Below, piece by piece: positions 7,936 through 8,722 of a stretch of 39,136 bases of DNA. The stretch is from Parcubacteria group bacterium GW2011_GWA2_43_11 (GTDB taxonomy: Bacteria; Patescibacteriota; Minisyncoccia; Phycocordibacterales; UBA12088). The DNA lies in assembly GCA_000998805.1 (NCBI GenBank), contig LCFC01000003.1:1-39136 (forward strand), written 5' to 3'. Under the pieces are notes generated by a model. That model had not been told where the DNA came from. It ran no database searches and saw only the letters and a program-made list of their open reading frames with translations. The position numbers and the translations under genes were made by a program. Every line of letters starts with the position of its first letter. Position 1 is the stretch's first letter.

Positions 7936-8379
7936 TTATTTTTTTGAAAGCAAATCTCGAATTTCAGTAAGCAACTCCTCCTGTTTCGAAAGCTTGGCTT
8001 CTTCAATTTTTTCTTCTTCTTTTTGAGCCTTTTTAAGAGTTTTAGCAAGTACTAAATCTTTTTGTCTCTGAATTTCATTCATCGCTTTCATCACAATAAA
8101 AATAACAAAAGCGACTATCAGAAAGGTTATGATGGAGTTTATGAAAAATCCATACTGTACTGTAACTGCAGGAGCATCATTCACTGACTCTTTCAATGTC
8201 CACCGTAAATCACCAAAATCAATTCCTCCTGTTATATACCCAATCACGGGCATGATAATGTCGTTCGTGAGCGAAGTGACAATTTTACCAAAGGCACCAC
8301 CCACCACGACTGCAATTGCCAGGTCGACCACATTACCTCGCATGGCAAACTGCTTAAATTCTTCAAGAAATTTTTTCAT
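7936..8379 (-). CDS. mscL: Large-conductance mechanosensitive channel MscL
   Basis: EEFKQFAMRGNVVDLAIAVVVGGAFGKIVTSLTNDIIMPVIGYITGG; C-terminal LLTEIRDLL. Confidence 0.95.
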   Translation of the reverse strand: MKKFLEEFKQFAMRGNVVDLAIAVVVGGAFGKIVTSLTNDIIMPVIGYITGGIDFGDLRWTLKESVNDAPAVTVQYGFFINSIITFLIVAFVIFIVMKAMNEIQRQKDLVLAKTLKKAQKEEEKIEEAKLSKQEELLTEIRDLLSKK

Positions 8380-8636
8380 CCCGTTAGAGACAGGAAACGC
8401 TTGAGGCGATTTGTAATATATCTCTTACCCATCCCAGACTTGAGATACTTTTCGCGTGCCCTGGCGTCTTCCTCATTACTACTTGCTTCATAATAAACTA
8501 ATGTAAATGGTCCTCTGTTTTTTGTTGAACTATTCTCTCCTTTCTCATGTTGCCTCAAGCGTTTCCGTAGATTACCTGTGAAGCCTGTGTACATTTTTCC
8601 ATCTTTTCCACACTTCAATACGTAAATATACCACAT
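8376..8636 (-). CDS. GIY-YIG nuclease family protein (small URI/YhbQ-like), carried inside a family 2 element
   Basis: MWYIYVLKCGKDGKMYTGFTGNLRKRLRQHEKG... with YIYVLK/YTGFT motif. Last codons LSLTG* lie in the element end; TGA stop overlaps mscL ATG. Confidence 0.9.
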   Translation of the reverse strand: MWYIYVLKCGKDGKMYTGFTGNLRKRLRQHEKGENSSTKNRGPFTLVYYEASSNEEDARAREKYLKSGMGKRYITNRLKRFLSLTG

Positions 8637-8658
8637 GACGCTTTTGGTCTCTAACGGG
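8380..8658 (-). mobile_element. Candidate GIY-YIG-encoding mobile element, family 2
   Basis: Left end CCCGTTAGAGACAGG (8380-8394), right end GGTCTCTAACGGG (8646-8658), flanked by TTCAT and ATTCA. Confidence 0.6.
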
Positions 8659-8663
8659 ATTCA

Positions 8664-8722
8664 CCCGTTAGAGACAGGTCACAGAGGACCGTCGGCTATA
8701 TTAGTAATTGTTGGTATTTTTA
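8664..8722. mobile_element. Truncated non-coding family 2 copy
   Basis: CCCGTTAGAGACAGGTCACAGAGGACCGTCGGCTATATTAGTAATTGTTGGTATTTTTA matches the left half of 17761-17877; right end missing. Confidence 0.6.

What the first reader, a model, noticed from the sequence alone, without database searches (positions are those of the whole stretch)
8376..8722. GIY-YIG nuclease ORF inside an element with the same ends as the non-coding repeats, its stop codon completed by the host start codon
The GIY-YIG gene is bounded by CCCGTTAGAGACAGG (8380) and GGTCTCTAACGGG (8658), the same ends as the short non-coding elements at 16.4 and 17.8 kb. Its last codons CTG TCT CTA ACG GGA TGA (LSLTG*) run through the element end, and the TGA uses bases of the mscL start (ATGA, 8376-8379). 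Hypothesis: a small nuclease-linked mobile element inserts at ATGA start codons and creates a stop-start overlap so the invaded gene is still translated by coupling. The short elements would be its non-autonomous relatives. A second, truncated copy follows directly after an ATTCA spacer.
Basis: partly seen in the sequence, partly recalled or inferred. Interest (0 to 1): 0.9.

Follow-up and report, generated by a model that had tools for sequence, protein, structure and literature searches.

The report
GIY-YIG element inserting at start codons
A tiny mobile DNA element, carrying only a small GIY-YIG nuclease gene, inserts exactly at the start codons of bacterial genes and lets its own stop codon overlap the host gene's start, so even essential genes can carry it; it is found in many bacterial phyla together with short non-coding relatives.

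Summary
Window 8380-8658 is an element with 12-13 bp perfect inverted ends (YCCCGTTAGAGAY), flanked by TGAA duplications, encoding an 86-aa single-domain GIY-YIG nuclease whose last codons are the element end and whose TGA overlaps the mscL ATG. The same site is empty in congener G005 (also G003, G004) and holds only a non-coding element in G001, whose own nuclease copy sits at another gene's start codon. Further empty/occupied pairs show the non-coding copies move too. Of 80 related loci (CPR, Omnitrophota, Planctomycetota, Desulfobacterota, one archaeal MAG) 72 have both ends; in 50 the target completes the nuclease stop, in 33 it overlaps the next gene's start (pyrG, fmt, topA, ychF). End arms covary with almost no G-T pairs and end codons are frozen at synonymous sites, so the constraint is on DNA. 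A second class lies in pilin genes, reading LSLTG^FTLIE and recreating the prepilin cleavage site. No match to introns or known transposases. That the nuclease moves the element, and that coupling rescues expression, are inferred. No published description was found, but preprints and most subscription papers were not searchable.

The parts
8379..8659 (-). Nuclease-bearing mobile element, outermost bases included (T..A form): 13-bp perfect inverted ends, 279-281 bp
   Evidence: extra end base supported by covariation over 72 loci
8376..8636 (-). GIY-YIG nuclease ORF, 86 aa, ending LSLTG*; last codons are the element end, TGA supplied by the target
   Evidence: predicted fold pLDDT 92
8647..8658 (-). 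Upstream (5') inverted end of the element, CCCGTTAGAGAC on the minus strand
8380..8391 (-). Gene-side (3') inverted end, GTCTCTAACGGG on the minus strand, directly before the mscL ATG
8375..8378 (-). Gene-side copy of the duplicated target TGAA (part of mscL ATGAAA)
8660..8663 (-). Upstream copy of the duplicated target TGAA
7936..8379 (-). Invaded host gene mscL (147 aa)
   Evidence: Pfam MscL 4e-46; same site empty in G003, G004, G005 and non-coding in G001
8664..8713 (-). Truncated non-coding element upstream of the nuclease element; gene-side end and hairpin region kept, upstream end lost; right border approximate
16435..16559 (-). Non-coding element (125 bp) abutting the ATG of a RimK-like ATP-grasp gene (15526-16434)
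17761..17877 (-). Non-coding element (117 bp) abutting the ATG of a SpoU-type methyltransferase gene (17002-17760)
17884..18027 (-). Second, tandem non-coding element (144 bp) with a different, 19-bp hairpin stem

Best explanation
This is a minimal transposon-like element whose only protein is a single-domain GIY-YIG nuclease. Shown: it has perfect inverted ends (YCCCGTTAGAGAY..RTCTCTAACGGGR), mostly a 3-4 nt target duplication, a preferred site at translation starts (ATGNN for T..A-ended elements) and a fixed orientation towards the gene. It has many non-coding relatives with the same ends and an interchangeable hairpin 13 nt from the gene-side end, and it occupies different sites in close relatives. 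Its reading frame runs through the element end so that the target supplies the stop codon (TGA/TAA), which overlaps or lies just before the host start. In 17 of 26 start-codon insertions the upstream target copy (the host's original start) is in open frame with the nuclease (MNPVRD-...). Inferred: the host's own initiation region drives nuclease synthesis, and termination at TGA overlapping ATG hands the ribosome to the host gene, so insertion costs the host little. In pilin genes the same end reads in frame into the gene and recreates T-G^F-T, so prepilin peptidase could cut the nuclease off. Inferred: the nuclease cleaves the element ends, paired as DNA, and/or the target, and moves both itself and the non-coding copies.
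For: Ends, ORF and overlap. 72/80 loci across phyla with both ends, 50 with target-supplied stop, 33 with exact start overlap. Arm covariation with almost no G-T and frozen synonymous codons at the end. Outermost base goes with the target: T..A followed by TG in 35/38. Empty/occupied pairs: mscL, fba and three more, reciprocal cases. Nuclease copy at different start codons in G000, G001, G002. Multi-copy carriers. In-frame nuclease with host start 18/26 against 14/46 elsewhere. Pilin fusion with N-methylation motif and T2SG domain. Conserved catalytic residues and GIY-YIG fold near UPF0213/Slx1. Patchy distribution.
Against: No experiment. 8 of 80 copies have no simple end pair. Several genomes with non-coding copies lack an exact-end nuclease copy, or its ends differ. 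Non-coding copies carry no ORF into the start, so coupling cannot explain how their host genes are translated. In G178 the upstream flank is not a duplicate of the target. Targeting and selection are not separated.
Confidence: 0.72

Rival explanations
1. The elements are moved by an unrelated transposase or recombinase elsewhere in the genome; the GIY-YIG gene is cargo, or an accessory such as a resolving or homing nuclease, that happens to sit between the ends.
For: Non-coding copies are far more numerous than nuclease copies; some genomes have non-coding copies without an exact-end nuclease copy; GIY-YIG enzymes are not known transposases (own knowledge).
Against: The nuclease is the only ORF between the ends in carriers of many phyla, its frame is built into the end, and end changes go with the element. 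No other shared protein was seen, though none was searched for systematically.
Confidence: 0.15
2. Homing-like spread: the nuclease cuts an empty start-codon allele and host recombination copies the element in; inverted ends serve regulation or protection, and the short copies arose by internal deletion.
For: GIY-YIG is a classical homing nuclease family (own knowledge); same genes are hit in relatives, e.g. pyrG in L085/L088 and ychF in L055/L056; Terrybacteria short copies keep KRFLSLTG*.
Against: Many unrelated sites with a 3-4 nt duplication, covarying perfect ends and movement to new loci in congeners are features of transposition, not allelic homing. No DNA-binding domain besides the catalytic one.
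Confidence: 0.09
3. The repeats are ancestral regulatory leaders of the host genes, not mobile elements.
For: Strong placement at gene starts with fixed orientation; a conserved hairpin; several sites shared by G000 and G001.
Against: Empty orthologous sites including mscL itself; duplicated targets; patchy distribution; nuclease gene at different genes in congeners.
Confidence: 0.04

Closest known systems
IS200/IS605 elements and REP/RAYT systems (own knowledge)
   Same: Small element with one small enzyme, hairpins near an end, many non-autonomous copies, short target next to the end
   Different: They use an HUH Y1 tyrosine transposase and give no target duplication; here a GIY-YIG nuclease, perfect inverted ends and a 3-4 nt duplication
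MITEs
   Same: The short copies have inverted ends, target duplication, 105-145 bp length and many copies
   Different: Fixed orientation at start codons and a subterminal hairpin whose stem sequence is exchanged
Free-standing GIY-YIG homing genes of phages (Seg, F-TevI; own knowledge)
   Same: Small GIY-YIG ORF lying between or at genes, close to the translation start of a neighbour
   Different: No inverted ends, no non-coding family, need homologous flanks, carry extra DNA-binding parts
Group I introns with GIY-YIG ORFs
   Same: A GIY-YIG ORF inside an inserted element in a gene
   Different: No intron match in Rfam; ends form a short inverted repeat
GIY-YIG insertions in CPR rRNA genes (PMC11270868)
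   Same: GIY-YIG genes in CPR insertions that fit neither group I nor group II introns, with many short ORF-less insertions
   Different: Described in rRNA genes only; ends not described; whether they are the same element was not tested
UPF0213 / Slx1-type single-domain GIY-YIG proteins
   Same: Closest fold and sequence among solved structures
   Different: No mobile element is known around them; Slx1 works with Slx4

Membership tests
GIY-YIG nuclease superfamily (protein) | GIY-YIG domain with conserved Tyr, Arg, Glu, Asn | tested here: met
   Pfam PF01541 4e-17; Y16-T-G, E62 and N76 invariant, Y5 and R24 nearly so in 42 sequences; fold
GIY-YIG nuclease superfamily (protein) | DNA cleavage | not testable with these tools
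   needs biochemistry
DNA transposon / insertion sequence | Terminal inverted repeats | tested here: met
   13 bp, 69-72 of 72 loci paired at each position
DNA transposon / insertion sequence | Target site duplication | tested here: met
   4-nt identical in 37/72, further 3-nt variant; empty sites
DNA transposon / insertion sequence | Recent movement (occupied and empty sites) | tested here: met
DNA transposon / insertion sequence | Known transposase (DDE, HUH, Ser or Tyr recombinase) inside | tested here: not met
   only a GIY-YIG ORF lies between the ends
IS200/IS605 | Y1 HUH transposase | tested here: not met
Group I / group II intron | Intron RNA core | tested here: not met
   no Rfam match in the window or in 12 loci
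Homing endonuclease gene | Spread only into allelic sites with homologous flanks | tested here: not met
   different genes in congeners
MITE (short copies) | Same ends as an autonomous element, no ORF, mobilised in trans | tested here: inconclusive
   Ends shared in G000-G002 and G024, but differ from the local nuclease copy in G008, G009, G017; trans movement not testable

The most novel reading that the evidence does not exclude
A new class of bacterial transposable element whose sole enzyme is a catalytic-domain-only GIY-YIG nuclease. It targets translation start regions (or prepilin cleavage codons) and is shaped so that its reading frame accepts ribosomes from the host's start signal and hands them back, which makes insertion into essential genes tolerable.
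Probability: 0.6. Interest if true: 0.92.

Novelty: categorically new. Interest (0 to 1): 0.88.

Why it matters
No bacterial transposon known to me uses a GIY-YIG nuclease as its only enzyme, and none is known to make start codons its home. If true, it explains many orphan '86-aa putative endonuclease' genes in CPR and other phyla, shows how a parasite can enter essential genes (pyrG, fmt, topA, ychF, map, fba) without killing them, and gives annotators a rule: a gene beginning right after CTAACGGG, or a pilin fused to GIY-YIG, is an invaded gene. It also offers a compact, directly testable system for insertion at start codons.

Tried and rejected
A conserved subterminal hairpin inside the coding elements: synonymous shuffles gave no excess, so the hairpin is claimed only for the non-coding copies. 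Matching of end variants between nuclease and non-coding copies of one genome: mixed result. Viral contigs: no relative found. PHROGs and PADLOC: no match. Non-coding copies as frame-keeping mini-ORFs: not supported in general, although Terrybacteria 135-bp copies keep KRFLSLTG at the end. A 104-bp CCCGTTAGAACTC repeat of G009 was set aside as a probable integron attC array (my reading, not tested). Literature: 6 searches found no description of such an element; the library lacks preprints and most subscription journals.

Full report
OBSERVATION. On the minus strand the order is: truncated non-coding element, TGAA T, CCCGTTAGAGAC, nuclease ORF, CTGTCTCTAACGGG, ATGAAA (mscL). The ORF's TGA uses the target's TGA. 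The end motif occurs 12 times in the window with up to 2 mismatches (1.9 expected) and 54 times in the 929-kb genome with up to 1 mismatch, against 3 for the reversed control. Most are paired 105-145 bp apart as non-coding elements.

ANATOMY OF THE NON-CODING COPIES. When oriented by their hairpin, 36 of 39 non-tandem elements listed for G000, G001 and G002 (3 of them nuclease copies) have ATG immediately after the end. About 32 of these are real gene starts, such as uvrA, map, fba, rnhA and ruvC (gene names read from the N-terminal sequences; own reading). The window has 170 intergenic ATGs for 38 genes, so 'ATG plus avoidance of coding DNA' predicts roughly one fifth at gene starts. Active targeting and selection are not separated by this. 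Of the five ATG sites scored as lacking an ORF, one (L011) is a gene cut by a contig end; the other four still have ATG but no obvious gene, which points to ATG as part of the target itself. A hairpin lies exactly 13 nt from the gene-side end. Among 38 copies it has 11 different stem sequences, with 256 Watson-Crick, 8 G-T and 3 mismatched pairs, so the palindrome is conserved and not its sequence. The tandem pair at 17761/17884 shares its left half and differs in the hairpin.

MOBILITY. The nuclease element (78-83% identical) is at other genes' start codons in G001 and G002; the G001 site has no element in G000. Non-coding copies: the fba, L006, L008 and L011 sites are occupied here and empty in G001, G001, G004 and G002 respectively; the L138 site is occupied in G001 and empty here. 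G003 and G004 have no end motifs at all, and G005 has one unpaired one-mismatch hit. In the wider phylum, 5 of 147 genomes have exact-end non-coding copies and 3 have nuclease-sized spacings.

RECURRENCE. A protein search gave 2,924 relatives; in an alignment of 42 of the closest, the FLSLT stretch is invariant and the final G nearly so. Of 80 genome loci (CPR, Omnitrophota, Planctomycetota, Desulfobacterota, WOR-3, one Woesearchaeota MAG and others), 72 have both ends. In 50 the stop is TGA (39) or TAA (11) placed one base after the end. In 33 the next gene's ATG or GTG starts exactly at the end, and in 44 within 12 nt. Invaded genes read as pyrG, fmt, topA, ychF and murC (N-termini; own reading). 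Multi-copy carriers exist: 16 end matches in G178 and 10 in G184, of which only some are full nuclease copies. In G178, four of the five elements examined that end in TAA lie directly before AAAGGAGG-like Shine-Dalgarno sequence and an ATG 15-18 nt on.

DNA-LEVEL CONSTRAINT. In 59 ORFs the end codons are CTA 59/59 and ACG 58/59, while the same amino acids use mixed codons inside the ORFs. The Ser position changes to Thr, Val, Ala or Phe while the third base stays T. Over the 13 end positions the arms are Watson-Crick at 69-72 of 72 loci, with up to 33 double changes at one position and almost no G-T. This favours pairing or common recognition of the two ends as DNA, not an RNA stem. T..A-ended elements are followed by TG in 35 of 38 cases; C..G-ended ones by TA (10), TT (9) or TG (8). 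So the outermost base goes with the target: A+TG gives ATG, and G+TTT gives the Gly-Phe of prepilins.

TRANSLATION. Where the upstream target copy begins with ATG/GTG, it is in frame with the nuclease in 18/26 (17 open), against 14/46 elsewhere (Fisher p=0.003, not corrected for relatedness). The nuclease can thus start at the host's own start (MNPVRD..). In four loci the target is TTTA inside a prepilin-like gene, and the nuclease frame reads on into FTLIE, FTFLE or FTILE. One of them (L050) scores for GIY-YIG, the N-methylation motif and T2SS protein G in one ORF. Both site types are places where an inserted ORF can be tolerated without removing it. That the relay works is inference.

PROTEIN. 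Single catalytic domain, predicted with pLDDT 92. Closest solved relatives are UPF0213 and Slx1, then I-TevI. Slx1-type enzymes cut branched DNA (own knowledge), so cutting at paired ends is a natural but untested guess.

COMPARISON AND NOVELTY. Not an intron. Not a known transposase type. It works like an insertion sequence with MITEs, but with a different enzyme and a start-codon niche. PMC11270868 reports GIY-YIG insertions in CPR rRNA genes that fit neither intron class; they may be related. The searchable library gave nothing closer, so 'categorically new' is stated with that limit.

LIMITS. Draft MAGs, related sequences counted separately, hand-set motif rules, no experiment. How the host genes of the non-coding copies start translation is unexplained; a fold that brings the upstream initiation region next to the second ATG is possible.

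Noticed in passing
L027 (G000:C6:78191-78394) and L029 (G000:C5:12807-13013): Other GIY-YIG ORFs of the same genome lack these ends and lie next to tRNA genes; L027 has GTCAATCGCA on both sides, one copy inside a tRNA-Tyr-like gene. Possibly another GIY-YIG mobile family with tRNA targets.
   Followed up: no
G009 (Omnitrophica MHFM01), e.g. L216, L228: About 25 copies of a clustered 104-bp repeat CCCGTTAGAACTC..GAGTTCTAACGGG that look like integron attC sites, not like this element.
   Followed up: no
L048, L084, L090: Upstream flank is pilin-like (TTTAC) but the downstream flank belongs to another site: possible recombination between element copies.
   Followed up: no
L004:299-377 (G000:C4): A 79-bp repeat with ends CCCGTTAGAAATTTCTAA also abuts an ATG: a further end variant in the same genome.
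   Followed up: no
L264, L269, L275 (G184, Terrybacteria): 135-bp copies without nuclease keep an open end ..SSVKRFLSLTG* overlapping ATG, as expected of internal deletions of the nuclease element.
   Followed up: partly
L261, L267, L270, L276, L279 (G178, Omnitrophota): Elements end directly before TAAAGGAG..ATG, i.e. upstream of a Shine-Dalgarno-like sequence, with a common upstream flank GCGAAGCCAGC in place of a duplicated target.
   Followed up: partly
L072 (Woesearchaeota MAG PCVE01000136): An archaeal MAG carries the element, followed directly by another left end; a binning error is not excluded.
   Followed up: no
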